In this document: piece after piece, positions 6,807 through 15,833 of the stretch | Layout of the letters: every line of letters starts with the position of its first letter | How positions within the stretch are numbered: the stretch's first letter is position 1 | Assembly: GCA_001898485.1 (NCBI GenBank) | Contig: MKTY01000020.1 | Coordinates: 248,001-312,000, forward strand | Direction: 5' to 3' | DNA length: 64,000 nt | Source of the DNA: Sphingobacteriales bacterium 46-32 | Lineage (GTDB): Bacteria > Bacteroidota > Bacteroidia > Chitinophagales > Chitinophagaceae | Notes under the pieces: model-generated | Told to the model about the DNA's origin: nothing | What the model saw: only the letters and a program-made list of their open reading frames with translations | Databases searched by the model: none | Translations under genes and position numbers: made by a program

Positions 6807-8207
6807 CTATCCGTCCATCTTCACTATTCTCGGCGTAAACCGTCCAATGGTGGTAACCAGTTGCTTCTGGGAATTCATGACTTCATAAATATCCTTGTAA
6901 GCAAACGGCGCTTCATCAAGACCACCTCCCAGCAATTTTACACCGGTGCGTTTCAACTCTTCCTTCAAGGCCGCATGAGAGATCGATTGCATTGCTGCAC
7001 CGCGGCTCATTCGCCGTCCTGCTCCGTGTGCCGCTGAATTAACGGCGGCCGGTTCACCTTTTCCTTTCACGATAAAGCCATCGGCCGTCATGGAACCCGG
7101 TATAATTCCCAGTACATCCCTGCCGGCCGGAGTAGCACCTTTGCGATGCACAATCACTTCCTGCCCTTCCCATTGTTCTTTCCAGGCAAAATTGTGATGA
7201 TTCTCTACCACCTTTATCGGTTTACGTCCCAGTTCCCGTGCGATCCTGGCGTGAATTACATCATGACAGGCTTTGGCATAGTCGCCGGCGAGGTTCATGG
7301 CCAGCCAGTACTCCATACCTTCTTCCTCATCAAGCATAAGCCAGGCGAGGTTTTTGGCATCGGCGGGAAGCCGGCGTTTACTGATAGCAATACTGGTATA
7401 ATGATTGGCAATCTTTGCTCCGAGTGCCCGTGAACCCGAGTGCGATAACAGACCCAGGTATTGACCAGCTTCTACTCCCAGCACCGCATCCTTTTCTTCG
7501 ATGTTCACTGCGCCAAACTCCACAAAGTGGTTGCCGGATCCGGAAGTACCCAGTTGTTTCCACGTACGGCCGTGCATATTTTTCAACAGCGGCAATTGCT
7601 GAAACAGGGGATCGTCCATAACGGCGTGATTACTTGCCTGCTTAAATTGTGCGCCGCTGCCAAACAGTGTAGCCTCATCGAGTATACGGGCAAACTGATG
7701 CTCCCGTTGCGTGAGTTCTTTTGGCGCAATGTCAAAAATACTCAGGCACATGCGGCAACCAATATCAACCCCCACACCATAAGGTATCACAGAGTGATGT
7801 GTAGCCAGCACGCCACCAATCGGCAAACCATAGCCTGCATGTGCATCCGGCATCAGCGCTCCTGCTACTGATACAGGTAATTTGGCAGCTGTATACATCT
7901 GGTGCATGGCCGTTTCTTCAATATGTTCGCTCCCGAATACATTAAACTGAATACCGCTTTTATTAAGCGAAGCAGCAATTGGTTCTTTCTCCGCAGGTGG
8001 CATGAGTTTTTCCGCAATCACAGCGAGTATCGCATCCTGGCTGTATTCAACCGGAGCTGCCAATACGCTCTTCAATAAATTCATAACCACCTCCTTTTTT
8101 TCGAATCTGCAATTCTTTTCCATTACCTGCATGGCCACACTGATTGCCGGTCCTTCCGGAAAACCAATGCCGCGCAGTTCTTTTGCTATTAATTTTAATC
8201 GTCCCAT
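6807..8207 (-). CDS. rtcB: RtcB RNA ligase with N-terminal extension
   Basis: RtcB joins RNA 3'-phosphate or 2',3'-cyclic phosphate ends to 5'-OH ends using GTP and manganese. This 466-residue protein keeps all six key residues known from the archaeal enzyme: Asp148 and Cys151 (GVDIGCRM), His227 (SGNHFVE), His256 (LSHSGSR), His338 (ENHHNF) and the guanylylated histidine His394 (AAHGAGRRMSR). Roughly 80 residues precede the usual start of the family. The motifs MPDAHAGYG and GCRM, in place of MPDVHLGKG and GCGM, mark a distinct subgroup. It is the last gene of a minus-strand set with a slipin, a tRNA-like RNA, an AAA+ ATPase and a YkuK-like protein, which points to stress-linked RNA repair. 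Confidence 0.95.
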   Translation of the reverse strand: MGRLKLIAKELRGIGFPEGPAISVAMQVMEKNCRFEKKEVVMNLLKSVLAAPVEYSQDAILAVIAEKLMPPAEKEPIAASLNKSGIQFNVFGSEHIEETAMHQMYTAAKLPVSVAGALMPDAHAGYGLPIGGVLATHHSVIPYGVGVDIGCRMCLSIFDIAPKELTQREHQFARILDEATLFGSGAQFKQASNHAVMDDPLFQQLPLLKNMHGRTWKQLGTSGSGNHFVEFGAVNIEEKDAVLGVEAGQYLGLLSHSGSRALGAKIANHYTSIAISKRRLPADAKNLAWLMLDEEEGMEYWLAMNLAGDYAKACHDVIHARIARELGRKPIKVVENHHNFAWKEQWEGQEVIVHRKGATPAGRDVLGIIPGSMTADGFIVKGKGEPAAVNSAAHGAGRRMSRGAAMQSISHAALKEELKRTGVKLLGGGLDEAPFAYKDIYEVMNSQKQLVTTIGRFTPRIVKMDG

Positions 8208-8221
8208 TTTTTAAGTTTTTA

Positions 8222-8330
8222 GTAAGGTAAAAGGCAAAGGGTGGAAGGTTAAAAGAATAAGAAGATAGCCCCTTCTGTTTTCAATATTACCTTTCTCCTT
8301 TTGCCATTTACCTTATCCCTTACTGAATAT
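8222..8330. repeat. AAGGTAAAAGGCAAA-type inverted repeat between slipin and rtcB
   Basis: The left arm reads AGTAAGGTAAAAGGCAAAGG. The reverse complement of the right arm reads AGTAAGGGATAAGG followed by TAAATGGCAAAAGG. The right arm includes the stop codon of the slipin gene. The 105-base spacer between the two genes is nearly all repeat, so the transcript can form a long AU-rich hairpin between them. Confidence 0.6.
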
Positions 8331-9410
8331 CCCTTTCAGCTGATCGAGCAATGCACCATTACCCTGGATACTGATACTGCTGATTTTTTCAGCAATCCTT
8401 TCCACATATTCCATTTCCTTCATTTTCCAGAGAATGGCATTATCCTCCATCAGCCTGGCGGTATTGAGCAAACTCCTGGTCTGTGCAGTTTCTTCGCGCC
8501 GCAGGATGCTATTGGCCTGTGCTTTCTTTTCAGCTACGAGTACCTGATTCATAATAGCCCGAACTTCTCCAGGCAGGATTATATCACGTACACCAAAGCT
8601 CATCAGGCTCACACCCAATCCAGCTGCAATTGTTTCCACACGTTCCTTTACAGCAGCAGCCAGTTCTTCTTTTTTCTCCAACAGTTCATCGAGCGTAAAT
8701 CCGCCTACATATTCCCGCAGGGCCAGTTGCAGCGCAACATATAGTTGCTGATCGTAGGCCTTATTGGCAAGCACAGCCCGCTCAATATTTTCCACCGCAT
8801 ACTGTACCCAGGCATTCAGCCGCAGGGCGGCTTTGTCTCTGGTAAGAATTTCCTGTCCGTTGATCTCGAGTTGCTGTACCCGGGTGTCGATACGTACCAG
8901 CGCAATACTGCTGCTGTTTTTCCACCAGTAATATGTACCGCCAGTCAGAATTTTCACCACGCGTCCATCCATAAAGAGCGCCGCCTTTTCATAAGGCTCT
9001 ACGGAAAGACTGCGCAGATAGGGCACCAGCAGCGGATGCTGAAACAGATTCCTGTCCACTTCTTCGGGAATATCTGTTTCACCAATATTCACCCGCACGA
9101 ACCGATTTTTAAGAATACTTTTCCAGAAGGCGTATATGCCAGTAGTCAGCACTTGTTTCAGCAGCCCGTTTTCGAAACGGAGTACAAGTTGACCGTCCCC
9201 CACTTCCACTACATCCAGTACACTTTTCAGTTCTTCATTTTCCAGCAACAGCCGGAGGTCTGTTGGTGCAGCAAAAGGTTGTGTGATGTCATATTTATAG
9301 ACCTGTTCTCCTTTCCAGAACCAATAGGTACCTGTAGTGATCATACGTACATATTCTTCGTTTTTAAATACCAGGCCGATTTGCCAGGCATTTACAGTTA
9401 CTCTTTGCAT
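8313..9410 (-). CDS. SPFH/Band 7 (slipin) protein with three N-terminal repeats
   Basis: This 365-residue protein has an SPFH core at about residues 165-290 (LNAWVQYAVENIERAV, then VSLMSFGVRDIILPGEV). A helical tail rich in Glu, Lys and Ala follows, of the kind that drives oligomer formation. Unlike most slipins it has no N-terminal membrane anchor. The first 165 residues hold three copies of a motif spaced 64 and 67 residues apart: ITTGTYWFWK at 24-33, LTTGIYAFWK at 88-97 and LTGGTYYWWK at 155-164. SPFH proteins form large ring or cage assemblies that recruit partners. Its place directly before rtcB and after the tRNA-like RNA suggests a scaffold for RNA repair. Confidence 0.85.
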   Translation of the reverse strand: MQRVTVNAWQIGLVFKNEEYVRMITTGTYWFWKGEQVYKYDITQPFAAPTDLRLLLENEELKSVLDVVEVGDGQLVLRFENGLLKQVLTTGIYAFWKSILKNRFVRVNIGETDIPEEVDRNLFQHPLLVPYLRSLSVEPYEKAALFMDGRVVKILTGGTYYWWKNSSSIALVRIDTRVQQLEINGQEILTRDKAALRLNAWVQYAVENIERAVLANKAYDQQLYVALQLALREYVGGFTLDELLEKKEELAAAVKERVETIAAGLGVSLMSFGVRDIILPGEVRAIMNQVLVAEKKAQANSILRREETAQTRSLLNTARLMEDNAILWKMKEMEYVERIAEKISSISIQGNGALLDQLKGIFSKG

Positions 9411-9503
9411 TTCTTTTACTTTTTAAAGGTTGTCAAACAAACAAAACAGATGACCGGCCACTCTTCATCGGCGGAGAAAACCTGTAATAAGTGTTGTTGA
9501 AAT

Positions 9504-9533
9504 CAATAACAATTCCCTTAAGGAAAATTATTG
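9504..9533 (-). other. Hairpin upstream of the slipin gene
   Basis: Outer arms CAATAA/TTATTG and a CCTTAAGG centre form an imperfect AU-rich hairpin 94 bases before the slipin start. No U-run follows on the minus strand. It may shield or mark the 3' end of the upstream structured RNA. The rest of 9411-9587 has no coding potential. Confidence 0.4.
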
Positions 9534-9587
9534 TCCCATATCCACACCTGTCAGTCAGTTTTCTGCAGGCTTTTGCCGGGTGTATCA

Positions 9588-9660
9588 GTAATTGAGTGCA
9601 TTACCAATCCGCCGGTCACCGTTTTGATTTTCATCTTTGATAAGGAAGTGATGGTCTCCC
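9588..9660 (-). ncRNA. Degenerate tRNA-like unit D
   Basis: In transcript order: a 5-7-5 arm GGGAG-ACCATCA-CTTCC in T-arm position, an acceptor-like hairpin TTATC-AAA-GATGA, one base, an AATC/GATT stem with a 16-base loop, one base, and a perfect 5-7-5 arm GTAAT-GCACTCA-ATTAC. The one-base spacing between D-stem and anticodon stem is that of a tRNA. The loops lack tRNA consensus bases (no TTC, no U33), so this unit is decayed or diverged. Confidence 0.4.
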
Positions 9661-9668
9661 TGCGTTCG

Positions 9669-9735
9669 CTACATCCTGATTGTAGTGCTCGTCCATTGAG
9701 CGTCCTCCTCTAAGGAGGGCAGGATTCGAACCTGC
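9669..9735 (-). ncRNA. Circularly permuted tRNA-like unit C
   Basis: In transcript order: T-arm GCAGG-TTCGAAT-CCTGC, acceptor hairpin CCTCC-TTAGA-GGAGG, AC, D-arm GCTC-AATGGAC-GAGC, A, anticodon arm CTACA-ATCAGGA-TGTAG. The anticodon loop has U33, purine 37 and would read CAG (Leu). All four arms of a tRNA are present with correct stem lengths for T, D and anticodon arms, but the T-arm comes first and the acceptor is a closed hairpin. The two acceptor strands could pair over 7 bp as in a normal tRNA, which suggests descent from a real tRNA gene by permutation. Confidence 0.75.
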
Positions 9736-9740
9736 ATCAC

Positions 9741-9810
9741 ACTGTTGCTCTACCAACTGAGCTATCGTATGGCGGATCTACGAAGGGGATTCGAACCCCT
9801 GACACACAGC
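9741..9810 (-). ncRNA. Circularly permuted tRNA-like unit B, open in the anticodon loop
   Basis: In transcript order: GCTGT (3' half of an anticodon stem), GTGTC (5-base variable loop), T-arm AGGGG-TTCGAAT-CCCCT, acceptor hairpin TCGTA-N9-TACGA, TA (U8, A9), D-arm GCTC-AGTTGGTA-GAGC, A26, ACAGT (5' half). GCTGT and ACAGT pair over five positions including one G-U. The unit therefore rebuilds a tRNA body whose only ends are in the anticodon loop. D- and T-loop bases needed for the elbow (A14, G18, G19, T54, T55, C56, A58) are all present. Confidence 0.72.
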
Positions 9811-9842
9811 TGCAGATCGGTCAGTGCGACAATGGCATACAG

Positions 9843-9882
9843 CTGGTTATTACCGCTGCACCAGGGTGCTTCTTTGAAGCAC
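9843..9882 (-). ncRNA. Acceptor hairpin and D-arm of tRNA-like unit A
   Basis: A 7-bp hairpin GTGCTTC-AAA-GAAGCAC is followed by CTGGT-N12-ACCAG, whose loop contains GCGGTAA with the G-G pair typical of D-loops. No canonical T-arm precedes it. The 42 bases between this D-arm and T-arm 1 contain two CAGCTG palindromes that could pair as an enlarged anticodon arm, in competition with the closing stem of unit B. Confidence 0.5.
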
Positions 9883-9963
9883 ACCTCCGGATTGCCTCTT
9901 AACTGCTTCACTGCCTTCCGATACGGAAGCTTTTATTGATTACCGGCTGTTACCGGTTTCACA

Positions 9964-11040
9964 TCAATTCATAATTTCCTGCGCCCGCCGGAATCCTATT
10001 ACCTGTTTTTCCTGCTCCTTTCCTGTTCTTTCGTTGGGATGAGCTATTTCTGCAATAGTTGCAGGAGCTTCAATCTTTGTATCCAGGCCCAGGTGTTTAG
10101 CCAGCCGCTGTGCCTTGGTCACACTCAGGCGTCCAAATTCATAACGCGCTATCAGTCTCCCCTGTCTGGTAAGCGCCTGGTCTACCAGGGTGAGCGCATT
10201 ATTGAACGTACAGATCAACTGCACATTCAGGAAATCGGCCAGCAGTCCATCTGATATATTCAGCAGGTTTGACACAGCAGAACCTGATCCATACCGGCGG
10301 TCTGTCAGAATATTTTCTGCATCCTCAATGATCAGTACCGTATTGGGGTGACTGATGAGCAATTGTACGAAGGATGGATCGACCAGGTGCTCTGCTACAG
10401 ATGGTGAAAGAAAAAGCACTCTCTTCTTTAATCTTCCCACCAGGTATCGCAGATAGGTTGTTTTACCTGTACCCGGCAATCCATGCAGCAGTACAATGCC
10501 CTTATCATTTTTCCGGTTGAGGCGGTTGCAAATGGTTTCGTCAACAGCTTTAAAATCGTCCTCATAATAGAGATCCAGATCAAGCCGCGTACGTCGTATA
10601 TCCATCGATCGCAATTCCACCCCACTGCGCGTTTGCACAACCAGGTTAATTTCGAGGGGTTGTCTCTTTTGTCTTTGGCGGTGCCGGAACAACAGTTTCA
10701 CCAACTCTTCCACCCGTTTTGGTTGTTGCCCGTCATGCAGAATCTCGCAACAGCTGCCATCAAAACTCAGCATCACCCGCCGGTGGAGGATCATAATCGA
10801 TTTATCCAGATAGGTTGTTTTATTGCCGGCCGTGCGCCATTGCATCTGGTAGACATCCGCTATTTCATCGGCCAGTTGCTTTCGGATGGTTTCGCTTGCC
10901 TTTTCGCTATCAATGCGAAAGAGCTCCTGTATATTAGGAAGCCTTCCAAATTGATAGAGATACAGTTGCCGTGCATCCAGGTAGTCATCACCGATCAGCC
11001 TGTTTAATGCCAGTGTCTTTTGCTGGCTTATAGTATCCAT
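9964..11040 (-). CDS. BCS1-like AAA+ ATPase of the RNA-repair locus
   Basis: This 358-residue protein has an uncharacterised N-terminal part (about 1-175) and one AAA+ module: Walker A HGLPGTGKT (186-194), Walker B VLIIEDAE (235-242), a sensor-1 asparagine in CTFN (280), and the arginine-finger region LTRQGRLIARYEF (290-302). The last segment resembles the BCS1 group of AAA proteins. No membrane segment is visible. It starts 29 bases after the YkuK-like gene, so the two are probably co-transcribed, and the tRNA-like RNA begins about 80 bases after its stop. A remodelling role on RNA or on the slipin assembly is inferred. Confidence 0.8.
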   Translation of the reverse strand: MDTISQQKTLALNRLIGDDYLDARQLYLYQFGRLPNIQELFRIDSEKASETIRKQLADEIADVYQMQWRTAGNKTTYLDKSIMILHRRVMLSFDGSCCEILHDGQQPKRVEELVKLLFRHRQRQKRQPLEINLVVQTRSGVELRSMDIRRTRLDLDLYYEDDFKAVDETICNRLNRKNDKGIVLLHGLPGTGKTTYLRYLVGRLKKRVLFLSPSVAEHLVDPSFVQLLISHPNTVLIIEDAENILTDRRYGSGSAVSNLLNISDGLLADFLNVQLICTFNNALTLVDQALTRQGRLIARYEFGRLSVTKAQRLAKHLGLDTKIEAPATIAEIAHPNERTGKEQEKQVIGFRRAQEIMN

Positions 11041-11069: not shown

Positions 11070-11555
11070 TCATTGTACCATTTTATTGGCGCACGCAGAA
11101 CTGGCAAATGCGTGCGGTTTGGCGCGAAAACTGAATCCCATACCCCGTATGTAGCCCATTGCTTCGCGTAAGGCTTCATTACTTTTAAAAGCAGGATTGG
11201 TATTGATGTCGGCATGCACTTCCATATCCACAGAAAACCTGGAGAATATATTGCACACCCTGTATGCCACTTCAATACTTTTGGCCACTTCAAAAAGCAT
11301 GCGTTCCTTAACAGTCATCTTCTGGCGGGTTGTGTCGTGCAGTACATACATAAAACCTCCTTTGCCTTTCCGGATCAGTACAATCACTGTGGCAAAATGG
11401 ATCGTGCGTCCTTTCACCTGGCTATCTGTACCAATGCAGGCTTTCAGTAAATGGCCATCGCTGCATTCCTGCTCCAGTCTTCCGATGAGTTCATCTTCAA
11501 TCGTTCCGGTTATCCGCTCGCCATTGAGTCTCCTCCAGATTTGTATCTTTTCCAT
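11070..11555 (-). CDS. YkuK/DUF458-like RNase H-fold protein
   Basis: The 161-residue protein matches the DUF458 (YkuK) family, which is predicted to have an RNase H-like fold. It has an early acidic strand CIGTDSQVKG (aspartate near residue 44), a central strand containing HFATVIVLI, and a later acidic segment DMEVHADINTNP followed by KSNEAL. These acidic residues fit metal-binding sites of RNase H-like nucleases, although no activity is established for the family that I know of. It heads the ATPase/RNA/slipin/RtcB set, which suggests that it cuts or binds structured RNA. Confidence 0.82.
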   Translation of the reverse strand: MEKIQIWRRLNGERITGTIEDELIGRLEQECSDGHLLKACIGTDSQVKGRTIHFATVIVLIRKGKGGFMYVLHDTTRQKMTVKERMLFEVAKSIEVAYRVCNIFSRFSVDMEVHADINTNPAFKSNEALREAMGYIRGMGFSFRAKPHAFASSACANKMVQ

Positions 11556-11702: not shown

Positions 11703-11834
11703 TCATCGCATAGGAAATTCAGCAGGGTGTATCACCCGTTCATTTCCCGTTGTTGTTTTTTCGTTTTTGATTGGCCGCCACTCAAAAATGAGAGACAGTA
11801 AACAAATACCCAGCAGTCCCATTATCCATATCAT
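11703..11834 (-). CDS. 43-residue single-pass membrane peptide
   Basis: The start at 11834 is chosen because AAGGAGG lies five bases before that ATG, an unusually strong ribosome binding site for this phylum. An in-frame ATG at 11891 lies inside a terminator hairpin. The peptide starts with a hydrophobic helix (MIWIMGLLGICLLSLIF), then a charged, polar tail. It lies 147 bases upstream of the YkuK-like gene on the same strand and may be the first gene of the RNA-repair operon. I do not recognise the family. Size and layout resemble small regulatory or complex-stabilising membrane peptides. Confidence 0.55.
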   Translation of the reverse strand: MIWIMGLLGICLLSLIFEWRPIKNEKTTTGNERVIHPAEFPMR

Positions 11835-12218: not shown

Positions 12219-12311
12219 TTACGGATTCGTGGCAATACCACCGCACCAGCATTGATTCCCTCCCAGAGGAAACATGCGTGACTGTTTAATATGTGCTATT
12301 ACCTGATACAT
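12219..12311 (-). CDS. 30-residue peptide with a CWCGG core
   Basis: The reading frame runs from ATG at 12311 to TAA at 12219. It begins MYQVIAHIKQSR and ends GGNQCWCGGIATNP, with a second possible start at the internal Met 13. It is too short to be judged by length alone. The support is the compact gene unit: a promoter-like sequence 20-50 bases upstream, the frame, and a strong terminator 26 bases after the stop. The Cys-Trp-Cys-Gly-Gly core after a Gly-Gly suggests a metal-binding peptide or a precursor of a modified peptide. No maturation enzyme is adjacent. I do not recognise the family. Confidence 0.5.
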   Translation of the reverse strand: MYQVIAHIKQSRMFPLGGNQCWCGGIATNP

Positions 12312-12913: not shown

Positions 12914-13753
12914 TCAAAATTCGAGCTCATCAATTTCTACTTCACGGATATTCCAGTATCCGTTGATAGTATCAAACTCAAGTAATACCCGCCAGTTTGC
13001 TTTGGTAAACCAGCTTTTGCCGTTCAGGCTGGTCAATATGGAATAAAAGCCTTCGGTATAACAGAACGGATACATGATCTGACAATCGGTACATACAACT
13101 TCATTGGGCATCAGGTCTGTATAATACCGTTTGAATCTGTTGACGACATCTTTCAGTTCATCACGTGTAAGGCCGGTGTGTTGGTTAAGGCGGAGATTAT
13201 CTTCCCAGAAATGAAAAGGAATATGCATGGGTTGATTATCCAAAAGAGCTTTTACCCCAAAATGGCAGGCGGTTTGAGTTGCTTCGTAAACAGGATCAGG
13301 AAAAAACTCATCGTACACAAAACAGTGAATAAGGTTGGGTATATCTATGTCGCTTACATCAAGCTCAAGCATTTCGCCCAGTGCAAACCGGTATAAATCA
13401 CGGTGAGATACGCGGGGGCTGCTGGCGGTAAGGCTTATACCATGTTGCCGCATATAATCGTGCAGATTATTCCAGGCCAGTTCCATTTCATTTTCAGGAA
13501 TTTCATTGATCGGTTTAAAATGACGGGGATAGCCAAGACGCTTATCTACTTTAATAAATTTCTTAAGCGCATACTGCCGTTCAAACTCCATCACCCGGTT
13601 AATAAAACCTTCACAGCTATCCGGAGAAAACCCCTCTCCGTATTCATCATCAATAAACAGGAGTTGAAATGATTTACTGGATGGAGTATGTCCGGATTCT
13701 TCCGGAACCGGCTCCTGCTCTTCTGGCGGAATTTGTTCAGAATTATCTTGCAT
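12914..13753 (-). CDS. Uncharacterised Bacteroidota protein with Cys cluster
   Basis: I do not recognise a named family. The start at 13753 (MQDNSEQIPP) is preferred over 13795 because it removes an odd cysteine-containing leader and follows a purine-rich stretch. The 279-residue product has an acidic, proline-rich N-terminus (PPEEQEPVPEE), no signal peptide and no membrane segment, so it is probably cytosolic. Near the C-terminus a CTDCQIMYPFC cluster may bind metal. The last strand ends in the acidic IREVEIDELEF. It converges on the META gene with almost no gap. Confidence 0.65.
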   Translation of the reverse strand: MQDNSEQIPPEEQEPVPEESGHTPSSKSFQLLFIDDEYGEGFSPDSCEGFINRVMEFERQYALKKFIKVDKRLGYPRHFKPINEIPENEMELAWNNLHDYMRQHGISLTASSPRVSHRDLYRFALGEMLELDVSDIDIPNLIHCFVYDEFFPDPVYEATQTACHFGVKALLDNQPMHIPFHFWEDNLRLNQHTGLTRDELKDVVNRFKRYYTDLMPNEVVCTDCQIMYPFCYTEGFYSILTSLNGKSWFTKANWRVLLEFDTINGYWNIREVEIDELEF

Positions 13754-13882
13754 AGGAAAAAGTTTAGGACATGAAAGTAAATAGCCGGAGGGCAAGTACC
13801 ATGAGAAAAAAACAGGAAAAAGATGGGAAAAAAACGGCGGCCAGATCAGATTAATGACATATTATTAAGCACAGATTTGTGC

Positions 13883-13956
13883 ATCTGGATATTTGAGAAG
13901 GCGAACCAGCTGGCTACTGCCAACTACCCCAGGTTCAAATTTTCAAATATCCAGAT
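13883..13956. repeat. 14-bp inverted repeat with 46-base spacer
   Basis: ATCTGGATATTTGA at 13883-13896 is repeated as its exact complement at 13943-13956. It fills the space between the uncharacterised gene start and the radical SAM stop, and no gene lies inside. It could be a large hairpin or a remnant of a small mobile element. Confidence 0.55.
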
Positions 13957-13985
13957 ACATAAACCTATGTACTGCCACAAGCAGC

Positions 13986-15092
13986 TCAAAAAAGTCTGCC
14001 CTGCTCACCCGGTCTTCTGAACTGAGAAGTATCCAGGCTCCATTCCTCTGCATTCATCCCATACAGCCTGCCATATTTTTTATACTGCTGTGCTACCAAT
14101 TCCGCAATACTTCCTTCACCACGCATTCGTACTCCCCAGCGGCTGTCGTTTACCTTACCATTATGCGATTGCTCTACCAGGTGCCAGACTTTATCTGCCC
14201 GTTCAGGAAAATTTTTATATAACCAGTCATGAAAAAGAAGTTTGATTGCTCCATTGAGTCTGATAAATGTATAAGCTGTGAATGTAGCTCCGTTATCGCG
14301 CGCTTCCTTCATGATCCGCTGCATTTCATGCTCATTCAGCCCTGGTATCATTGGCCCCATCATAATTCCCATTCTGATACCGGCTTCGCTTAGCTCGCGG
14401 ATAACCCGCAATTTTTGCTGAGCAGTGGTAGTACGTGGTTCCATAACCCGGCGAAGGTCTTCATTAAAGGACGTAATGGAAACCATAGCCGACACAATGT
14501 TTTTAGCAGCCATCTGCTGCAGTATGTCCTTATCTTTCAGTATCCAGCTGTTCTTCGTAAGTATGCCTACAGGCTGATTAAATTCGTTGCAGACCTCCAG
14601 CAATCGCCGCGTAAGCCGGTATTGCTGTTCTGCAGGCTGATAGCAGTCTGTATTGCCACTCAGCATAATAGGTATTGGCTGCCATTTAGGATTCATCAGG
14701 AACTTACGCAGCAGGGCCGGAGCATTTTTTTTGACAATGATCTTTCGTTCAAAATCCAAACCTGCGCTGTACCCCCAGTATTCATGTACGTTTCGTGCAT
14801 AACAATAAATACAGCCGTGTTCACAGCCGGCATATGGGTTCATGCTGTATCCCATACCTACATCAGGGCTGTCCACTTTGTTGACAATACTTTTTGCCTC
14901 CTGTTCCAGATACTGGGTAGATATATTTTCTTCTGACCAGTCATCAATACCTTCTACATGCTCCCGCGTTCGCTGATCTTTTAAAAACCGGTTGGGAGTA
15001 TTGATCTGCGCTCCCCGCCCCTGCAGGTATTGGGTGACTTCTTCCTGGCTGGCCGGCTTTACTTTGTAATGGTCCTGTTTCAATTTTGACAT
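13986..15092 (-). CDS. PA0069/SplB-like radical SAM protein
   Basis: The 368-residue protein has the radical SAM cluster motif in GCEHGCIYCYARN (near residue 90; CxxxCxxC). Further segments are typical of the PA0069/Rv2578c group: MLSGNTDCYQPAEQ, VGILTKNSW and MGPMIPGLNEHEM. The group is related in fold to spore photoproduct lyase, but the substrate is unknown. SAM cleavage on a 4Fe-4S cluster is expected. Length is normal for the group. The neighbours give no metabolic clue. Confidence 0.87.
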   Translation of the reverse strand: MSKLKQDHYKVKPASQEEVTQYLQGRGAQINTPNRFLKDQRTREHVEGIDDWSEENISTQYLEQEAKSIVNKVDSPDVGMGYSMNPYAGCEHGCIYCYARNVHEYWGYSAGLDFERKIIVKKNAPALLRKFLMNPKWQPIPIMLSGNTDCYQPAEQQYRLTRRLLEVCNEFNQPVGILTKNSWILKDKDILQQMAAKNIVSAMVSITSFNEDLRRVMEPRTTTAQQKLRVIRELSEAGIRMGIMMGPMIPGLNEHEMQRIMKEARDNGATFTAYTFIRLNGAIKLLFHDWLYKNFPERADKVWHLVEQSHNGKVNDSRWGVRMRGEGSIAELVAQQYKKYGRLYGMNAEEWSLDTSQFRRPGEQGRLF

Positions 15093-15209
15093 AGGTAAGG
15101 GTTAATAGCTAAGGGTAATCGATCGTGAATATTGTATAACATAGGGTACGGCGCTGAATACCGTTATATCAGTTCAATTTTCTGATGTTCATAAAACATT
15201 GTACAGGAC

Positions 15210-15833
15210 TCAGGTGAATAAAAACTGCCCCTGCCGGGTGGCAACCGGCATGTTTTCAAAAGAGTAGGCTCCGGCGACACGAAACGGCCACTCTCCTGCC
15301 TGTCGCTTCAGCAATAACATGCGGTCGGCAATAAAGCGCCCGCTGAATGCCTTCTGGCTGTATTCGGGCCAGCTCTTTTCATATTGCCAGGGTTTGAGCC
15401 GGGCTGCCAGTGTGATATGAGGCTCCAGGATAAAATGCGGTTTATTCTCATCATTCAGCTTCATAATCCGCTGCGTTTCCTGTCTTATTTCCTTTACCAG
15501 CTTCTGTACAGGCAACCGGCTGGCTACCTGTACATATACGCTGTGGCTGGGAAAACTTCCGAAATCTTTCAACTCCACTTTAAAAGGAGTCACCCCCATA
15601 GCCAACTGACGCAACCGGTTACTGATCCGCTCTTCCATCATTTCATACTGTACAAAATTGACCAGCAGTAAATTCGACCGGCCAAGCCCCTTGCCTTCTA
15701 TCTGATAGGCTGTATTGTACTCCTGACGCAACTGGCGCACTTTATCCCGCAACACATCAGGAAGCGGAATCACCAACTGATATTCAAAGACCCGATAACC
15801 CGGAATTGTTAACCCTGTTACTTCCATAACCAT
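15210..15833 (-). CDS. 2'-5' RNA ligase-like (2H phosphoesterase) protein, first motif lost
   Basis: The 207-residue protein has the two-lobed 2H layout. The second catalytic motif is intact (EPHITLAARL near residue 139), but the place of the first HxT is taken by SNLLLVNF near residue 53. 2H enzymes need both histidines, so this member may bind RNA or nucleotides without cutting them. Alternatively HSVYVQVAS near residue 97 could be a displaced motif. It diverges from the umuD-like gene across 135 bases. The family call is moderately sure. Confidence 0.65.
   Translation of the reverse strand: MVMEVTGLTIPGYRVFEYQLVIPLPDVLRDKVRQLRQEYNTAYQIEGKGLGRSNLLLVNFVQYEMMEERISNRLRQLAMGVTPFKVELKDFGSFPSHSVYVQVASRLPVQKLVKEIRQETQRIMKLNDENKPHFILEPHITLAARLKPWQYEKSWPEYSQKAFSGRFIADRMLLLKRQAGEWPFRVAGAYSFENMPVATRQGQFLFT

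What the first reader, a model, noticed from the sequence alone, without database searches (positions are those of the whole stretch)
9588..9882. Chain of inside-out tRNA modules with hairpinned acceptor stems
Four successive units repeat the order T-arm, closed acceptor hairpin, D-arm, anticodon arm. Two T-loops are exact TTCGAAT, two D-loops have the G-G pair, and one anticodon arm is a perfect 5-7-5 with U33. The spacings (two bases before the D-stem, one after) are those of tRNA. This is neither a set of normal tRNA genes nor random decay, because T-arms and acceptors are joined to the next unit's D-arm. It looks like a concatemer of tRNA mimics, which I do not recognise as a described RNA class.
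Basis: seen in the sequence. Interest (0 to 1): 0.92.

Follow-up and report, generated by a model that had tools for sequence, protein, structure and literature searches.

The report
Tandem inside-out tRNA-mimic RNA
Next to the genes for a membrane protein (slipin) and an RNA-repair enzyme (RtcB), this bacterium encodes a conserved structured RNA built from two tRNA look-alikes with their parts in rotated order plus an anticodon-like hairpin, a relative of bacterial Y RNAs that has apparently parted from their usual protein partner and may act in tRNA damage repair.

Summary
The AAA-slipin gap (9411-9963) holds a structured RNA with two tandem circularly permuted tRNA modules (T-arm, closed acceptor hairpin, UA/AC, D-arm), then a closed 5-7-5 anticodon-like hairpin and an H-type pseudoknot. 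Nineteen homologous loci support it by covariation (29 of 35 pairs compensatory; score 0.64 vs 0.22 shuffled). The module is not unheard of: it is the tRNA-mimic module of bacterial Y RNA (YrlA, RF02553; crystal structure 6CU1). The RNA is not a standard Y RNA: the Ro-binding stem is missing, this genome has no Ro60 gene, modules come in tandem, and anticodon-type hairpins with varied triplets are attached. The RNA precedes slipin across Bacteroidota; tRNA-like units also precede slipin in some proteobacterial RNA-repair operons. Many loci carry arrays of ordinary tRNA genes upstream. Best reading: a Ro-free, slipin-linked branch of Y-RNA-type tRNA mimics in a tRNA-damage/translation-stress locus, working as tRNA decoy, scaffold or sensor. 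Identity is well supported; mechanism is inferred.

The parts
9632..9935 (-). Approximate extent of the conserved structured RNA (5' hairpin domain, two permuted tRNA modules, anticodon-like hairpin, pseudoknot); transcript ends unknown
9810..9935 (-). 5' domain: hairpin CTTCC..GGAAG, hairpin GTGCTTC-AAA-GAAGCAC, helix GTGCAG../..CTGTATGC with conserved GTARTAAC loop
   Evidence: RNAalifold of 17 loci, 13 of 22 pairs with compensatory change
9742..9809 (-). Module 1: outer anticodon-type stem CTGT/ACAG, 5-nt variable loop GTGTC, T1, acceptor hairpin, TA, D1 (YrlA-like)
   Evidence: YrlA RF02553 positions 23-85, 33.5 bits, E 2e-5; covariation
9784..9800 (-). T-arm 1 (AGGGG TTCGAAT CCCCT)
9765..9783 (-). 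Closed acceptor hairpin 1 (TCGTA GATCCGCCA TACGA)
   Evidence: 5 of 5 pairs with compensatory changes
9747..9762 (-). D-arm 1 (GCTC AGTTGGTA GAGC)
9719..9735 (-). T-arm 2 (GCAGG TTCGAAT CCTGC)
9704..9718 (-). Closed acceptor hairpin 2 (CCTCCT TAG AGGAGG)
9687..9701 (-). D-arm 2 (GCTC AATGGAC GAGC)
9669..9685 (-). Closed anticodon-type hairpin, 5-7-5, loop ATCAGGA (U33, triplet CAG)
   Evidence: 93 canonical anticodon-type hairpins in 83 loci vs 4.9 in shuffles
9632..9661 (-). H-type pseudoknot: S1 9661-9656/9648-9643, S2 9653-9650/9635-9632
8313..9410 (-). Slipin / SPFH (Band_7) protein, the constant gene partner of the RNA
   Evidence: Pfam PF01145; R1 hits upstream of slipin in 65 loci
6807..8207 (-). 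RtcB RNA ligase
   Evidence: Pfam PF01139, 266.7 bits
9964..11040 (-). AAA ATPase upstream of the RNA
   Evidence: Pfam PF00004; conserved in family loci
11070..11555 (-). RNase H-like (YkuK-type) protein; in several relatives directly preceded by a tRNA gene array
   Evidence: Pfam PF04308

Best explanation
The gap encodes a conserved noncoding RNA (minus strand) made of two tandem, circularly permuted tRNA modules of the bacterial Y RNA (YrlA) type, with a 5' hairpin domain, an anticodon-type hairpin and a pseudoknot. It is a Ro-free branch of these tRNA mimics linked to slipin. Shown: structure, conservation, gene linkage. Inferred: the locus responds to translation stress or tRNA damage, and the RNA offers protein-binding tRNA elbows (T-loop/D-loop) and naked anticodon arms, serving as decoy or scaffold for tRNA-acting proteins. 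The partners could be the locus's own repair proteins (slipin, RtcB) or tRNA-cleaving nucleases. A cut in the displayed anticodon loop by a metal-independent tRNase would leave 2',3'-cyclic phosphate and 5'-OH ends, which RtcB can seal (established RtcB biochemistry). My confidence is about 0.97 for a real structured RNA with Y-RNA-type modules, about 0.8 for a role in tRNA damage or translation stress, and about 0.35 for the decoy/scaffold mechanism; the score below is for the statement as a whole.
For: Covariation in two modules and the anticodon hairpin; pseudoknot; 5' domain. YrlA matches module 1 here and in most of 20 relatives, as a rule only over positions about 23-88 of 114. Ro-linked Y RNAs of the same bacterial family mostly match the full model 1-114. 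Own genome: one copy, 130.8 bits, no TROVE/Ro60. Linkage: among 119 family genomes, R1 hits of at least 79 bits occur in 19 of 29 with this slipin and in 0 of 90 without (Fisher 4e-15). In 65 of 80 slipin loci from Bacteroidota a hit of at least 81 bits ends 191-657 nt before slipin. Stress/repair context: RtcB beside it; tRNA gene arrays upstream, at least 3 genes in 36 of 67 loci and at least 8 in 21; Photobacterium RtcR | two tRNA-like units - slipin - RtcB; Citrobacter slipin beside rtcR. In Anabaena a 26-tRNA operon, rtcB and a slipin gene are derepressed together when TrcR is lost, and TrcR repression is relieved by translation antibiotics (PMC10272220). Anticodon-type loops follow tRNA rules and carry many different triplets.
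Against: No expression, binding or cleavage data. The RNA may only be a leader of the slipin mRNA: no Bacteroidota-type promoter stands out within 700 nt upstream. Some relatives have one module or lack the anticodon hairpin (L050, L054), so that hairpin is not indispensable. RtcB was found within the fetched stretch in only 39 of 80 loci.
Confidence: 0.55

Rival explanations
1. Cis-acting sensor: the RNA is the 5' leader of slipin-rtcB and controls their expression, for example because cleavage of its anticodon hairpin or competition with damaged tRNA for an elbow-binding protein changes readthrough or translation.
For: Fixed position 191-657 nt upstream of slipin on the same strand; no clear own promoter found, so probably part of a longer transcript; pseudoknot next to the anticodon hairpin.
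Against: A long gap (median 357 nt) separates the RNA from slipin; no terminator-like switch was found between RNA and slipin on that strand in the window. Ro-linked relatives are separate Y RNAs downstream of Ro, that is trans-acting in kind.
Confidence: 0.25
2. Ordinary bacterial Y RNA that works with a Ro60 (Rsr) protein.
For: Same permuted module; Ro genes occur in 13 of 119 family genomes and near slipin in L131, L177, L202, L204, L214.
Against: No TROVE domain in the own genome, 100% complete; the YrlA outer (Ro-binding) stem is not matched here, whereas it is in Ro-linked Y RNAs.
Confidence: 0.1
3. Permuted pre-tRNA genes that are processed, perhaps with RtcB, into functional tRNAs.
For: T-acceptor-D order and the RtcB neighbour recall permuted tRNA genes of algae and archaea (from memory).
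Against: Acceptor stems vary from 4 to 8 bp with short unrelated loops, without a conserved CCA; in module 2 the anticodon arm is a closed hairpin, so the break lies in the variable region, not in the anticodon loop; module 1 has no anticodon loop.
Confidence: 0.04
4. Decaying tRNA genes, or chance tRNA-like pieces left from a tRNA array.
For: tRNA arrays lie nearby in many relatives; the Rfam tRNA model matches D1-T2 at 29.5 bits, just over its cut-off of 29. Tandem tRNA duplication may be how the module arose.
Against: 29 of 35 pairs show compensatory change; conservation across families of Bacteroidota.
Confidence: 0.02

Closest known systems
Bacterial Y RNA YrlA (Rfam RF02553; structure PDB 6CU1)
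   Same: Circularly permuted tRNA module: T-arm, closed acceptor hairpin, two bases, D-arm, closed by a stem in place of the anticodon stem; linked to RtcB loci.
   Different: Tandem modules in one RNA, no Ro-binding stem matched, no Ro60 in the genome, closed anticodon-type hairpin(s), pseudoknot and 5' domain, fixed slipin partner.
rsr-yrlBA-rtcBA RNA repair operon (Salmonella; PMC7790460)
   Same: tRNA-mimic RNA beside RtcB; repair of broken tRNA implicated.
   Different: Slipin in place of Rsr; no RtcR or RtcA seen in the window; tRNA arrays in many relatives.
Anabaena trn operon / TrcR regulon (PMC10272220)
   Same: tRNA array, RtcB and slipin act in one translation-stress regulon.
   Different: Genes scattered in the genome; no tRNA-mimic RNA reported there.
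tRNA genes (RF00005) and tmRNA (RF00023)
   Same: T-loop and D-loop sequences, elbow contacts; tmRNA also combines tRNA mimicry with pseudoknots.
   Different: Rotated arm order, acceptor closed by a hairpin, no 3' CCA end.

Membership tests
Bacterial Y RNA (YrlA, RF02553) | Circularly permuted T-acceptor hairpin-D module | tested here: met
Bacterial Y RNA (YrlA, RF02553) | Outer stem of the paired 5' and 3' ends (Ro-binding) | tested here: not met
   Model positions 23-85 only (about 23-88 in most relatives; a few low-scoring full-length alignments); Ro-linked Y RNAs match 1-114
Bacterial Y RNA (YrlA, RF02553) | Ro60/Rsr (TROVE) protein in the genome | tested here: not met
   0 matches in own genome; 13 of 119 in the family
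Bacterial Y RNA (YrlA, RF02553) | Rfam gathering score 69 | tested here: not met
   33.5 bits; Ro-linked Y RNAs of this family reach only 34-49 too, so this is weak evidence
Bacterial Y RNA (YrlA, RF02553) | Binding to PNPase; DusA/TruB modification | not testable with these tools
   Described for YrlA in PMC8394870
tRNA gene | Order acceptor-D-anticodon-T-acceptor with free 3' end | tested here: not met
   ARAGORN 0; arms closed in rotated order
tmRNA | Rfam/ARAGORN tmRNA match | tested here: not met
Permuted tRNA gene | Break in the anticodon loop and processable 7-bp acceptor with CCA | tested here: not met
   Anticodon hairpin closed, acceptor stems 4-8 bp, no conserved CCA

The most novel reading that the evidence does not exclude
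A Ro-independent class of multi-module tRNA-mimic RNAs, partner of slipin, that displays changing anticodon arms as bait or tripwire for anticodon nucleases and is resealed by RtcB, within a tRNA emergency locus (repair enzymes plus spare tRNA array).
Probability: 0.25. Interest if true: 0.9.

Novelty: new variant of a known kind. Interest (0 to 1): 0.72.

Why it matters
Y RNAs are defined through Ro60; here their tRNA-mimic module appears, doubled and armed with anticodon hairpins, in loci where slipin takes Ro's place beside RtcB. That makes two open questions testable: what SPFH/slipin proteins do in RNA repair operons, and what the tRNA mimicry of Y RNAs is for. The link with tRNA gene arrays points to a widespread stress locus in Bacteroidota that both repairs and replaces tRNA.

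Tried and rejected
Four-unit reading: outer units lack T-arms and follow another conserved fold. Ordinary tRNA genes: ARAGORN negative. R1 matches below about 78 bits in genome scans are mostly pairs of adjacent ordinary tRNA genes read across their junction and were not counted. Ro dependence: no TROVE in own genome. Own promoter: no TAnnTTTG box in 700 nt upstream in 63 of 65 loci; no sigma-54 site at this locus. Phage origin: slipin has no match in 50,697 phage records.

Full report
WHAT IS THERE. The finding lies in a 553-nt gap between an AAA ATPase gene (9964-11040) and a slipin/SPFH gene (8313-9410), followed by rtcB (6807-8207), all on the minus strand. The element is on the minus strand too. 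ARAGORN finds no tRNA gene in the window. Rfam gives one match over threshold, a tRNA fragment of 29.5 bits joining D1 to T2; a search limited to the gap adds YrlA, the bacterial Y RNA, at 33.5 bits, E 2e-5. The gap as a whole folds better than shuffled sequence (z -5.3).

CHECK OF THE OBSERVATION. Two units are as described: T-arms with TTCGAAT, closed acceptor hairpins, exactly two bases, D-arms with GG, one base, and a 5-7-5 hairpin with U33. The other two are not tRNA-like.

HOMOLOGUES AND COVARIATION. Slipin relatives in the same bacterial family gave 29 loci, many with two modules at the same place in different genera. A plain MAFFT alignment of 19 folded by RNAalifold returns, without being told, an outer stem around module 1, T1, acceptor 1, D1, T2, acceptor 2, D2 and the anticodon hairpin: 35 pairs, 29 with compensatory change. 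Controls: 94% of cells paired against 72% in shuffles; covariation 0.640 against 0.223 shuffled and at most 0.166 when slid. The outer stem of module 1 varies CUGU/ACAG, CUGC/GCAG, CUAC/GUAG, GCCG/CGGC and is followed by a 4-5 nt variable loop, as in tRNA. A 5' domain (13 of 22 pairs compensatory) and an H-type pseudoknot (S2 pairs 100%, against 56% when strands are dealt anew; stems were chosen by best pairing, so this control is lenient) complete the RNA. Seventy-one percent of loci score at least 22 in the pseudoknot descriptor against 13% of shuffles.

DISTRIBUTION AND LINKAGE. A covariance model R1 finds the RNA once in the own genome (130.8 bits; next 37.7, and the next matches inspected fall on ordinary tRNA genes). 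In 65 of them a hit of at least 81 bits lies 191-657 nt before slipin. In 119 family genomes, 19 of 29 with this slipin and 0 of 90 without it have a hit of at least 79 bits. Modules per locus: 0 in 5, 1 in 26, 2 in 40, 3 in 6, 4 in 1; 0.05 in shuffles; 118 distinct acceptor stems among 128; the linker is TA or TG, tRNA positions 8-9, in 123 of 128.

RELATION TO Y RNA. The Salmonella Y RNA structure 6CU1 is a circular permutation of tRNA (PMC11472068), and YrlA carries D, T and acceptor arms on a basal stem that holds Rsr (PMC8394870). YrlA matches most of 20 relatives, as a rule only over the module. In Ro loci of the same bacterial family, one to four Y RNAs follow the Ro gene and mostly match the full model including the basal stem, 34-49 bits. 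Some of those Ro loci carry the same YkuK, AAA and RtcB genes. So the same gene set occurs with Ro plus Y RNA or with slipin plus this RNA; L131 has both. The own genome has no Ro. I therefore do not file it as a Y RNA, but as a sister arrangement that shares the module.

ANTICODON ARMS. Among 83 loci, 93 hairpins fit a strict anticodon arm (5-7-5, Y32 U33, R37, not G38), against 4.9 +/- 2.3 in shuffles (about half a dozen of the 93 are T-arms); triplets vary widely (TTT, CAA, GAA, GTT, CAT, GTG and others), and several Flavobacteriaceae have two in a row. The window's own loop (ATCAGGA) has A32 and is not in that count.

tRNA ARRAYS AND OTHER PHYLA. In several family loci an array of ordinary tRNA genes stands directly before the YkuK gene. 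Of 67 loci with enough upstream sequence, 36 have at least 3 same-strand tRNA genes and 21 have at least 8. The window has none. Outside Bacteroidota, Photobacterium has rtcR, then two tRNA-like units in normal order, slipin and rtcB; Burkholderia has a tRNA-like unit whose anticodon arm ends in a GAAA loop (my reading); Citrobacter slipin lies beside rtcR with only a weak match. An SPFH gene in the P. aeruginosa rtc locus is reported in PMC13086221. In Anabaena, loss of the repressor TrcR raises rtcB and a slipin gene and derepresses a 26-tRNA operon, and translation antibiotics relieve TrcR repression (PMC10272220).

MECHANISM. Shown: a conserved, structured RNA with tRNA-like arm sequences and linkage to slipin, RtcB and tRNA arrays. 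Inferred: service in tRNA damage or translation stress; elbow mimicry for protein binding; anticodon arms as decoys or triggers for tRNases; RtcB as resealing enzyme. The cis-leader model is the strongest rival. A tandem duplication of a tRNA gene reads T-acceptor-acceptor-D across its junction, with complementary acceptor strands; this offers a simple origin for the module and is my inference.

LIMITS. No transcript data; E-values of R1 are rough; the genome scans of more than 40 genomes use strict filters; named papers that may mention slipin-RtcB linkage could not be read.

Noticed in passing
L032, L035, L036, L037, L039, L057; L138-L214: Arrays of ordinary tRNA genes (up to 18) on the same strand upstream of YkuK or of the tRNA-mimic RNA in slipin/RtcB loci of Bacteroidota; absent in the window.
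   Followed up: partly
L122-L131: Ro60 loci in the same bacterial family carry one to four separate Y RNAs downstream of Ro, some with tRNA genes, YkuK, AAA and RtcB.
   Followed up: partly
L218:6632-6769; L217:6636-6745: Proteobacterial slipin genes are directly preceded by tRNA-like units in normal order; the Burkholderia one has a GAAA tetraloop in place of the anticodon loop.
   Followed up: partly
window 12219-12311 (-): Thirty-codon ORF MYQVIAHIKQSRMFPLGGNQCWCGGIATNP upstream of a terminator-like hairpin (12193-12168).
   Followed up: no
window 11703-11834 (-): Small ORF of 43 aa with a hydrophobic N-terminus and a good ribosome site, just after a terminator-like hairpin (11899-11871) and before the YkuK gene.
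   Followed up: no
window 12914-15833 (-): Conserved neighbours in several family loci: protein of 293 aa without Pfam match, radical SAM protein, 2'-5' RNA ligase (LigT-like).
   Followed up: partly
L104:1234-1307 (-): Flavo-1 RNA match below its gathering score near the slipin RNA.
   Followed up: no
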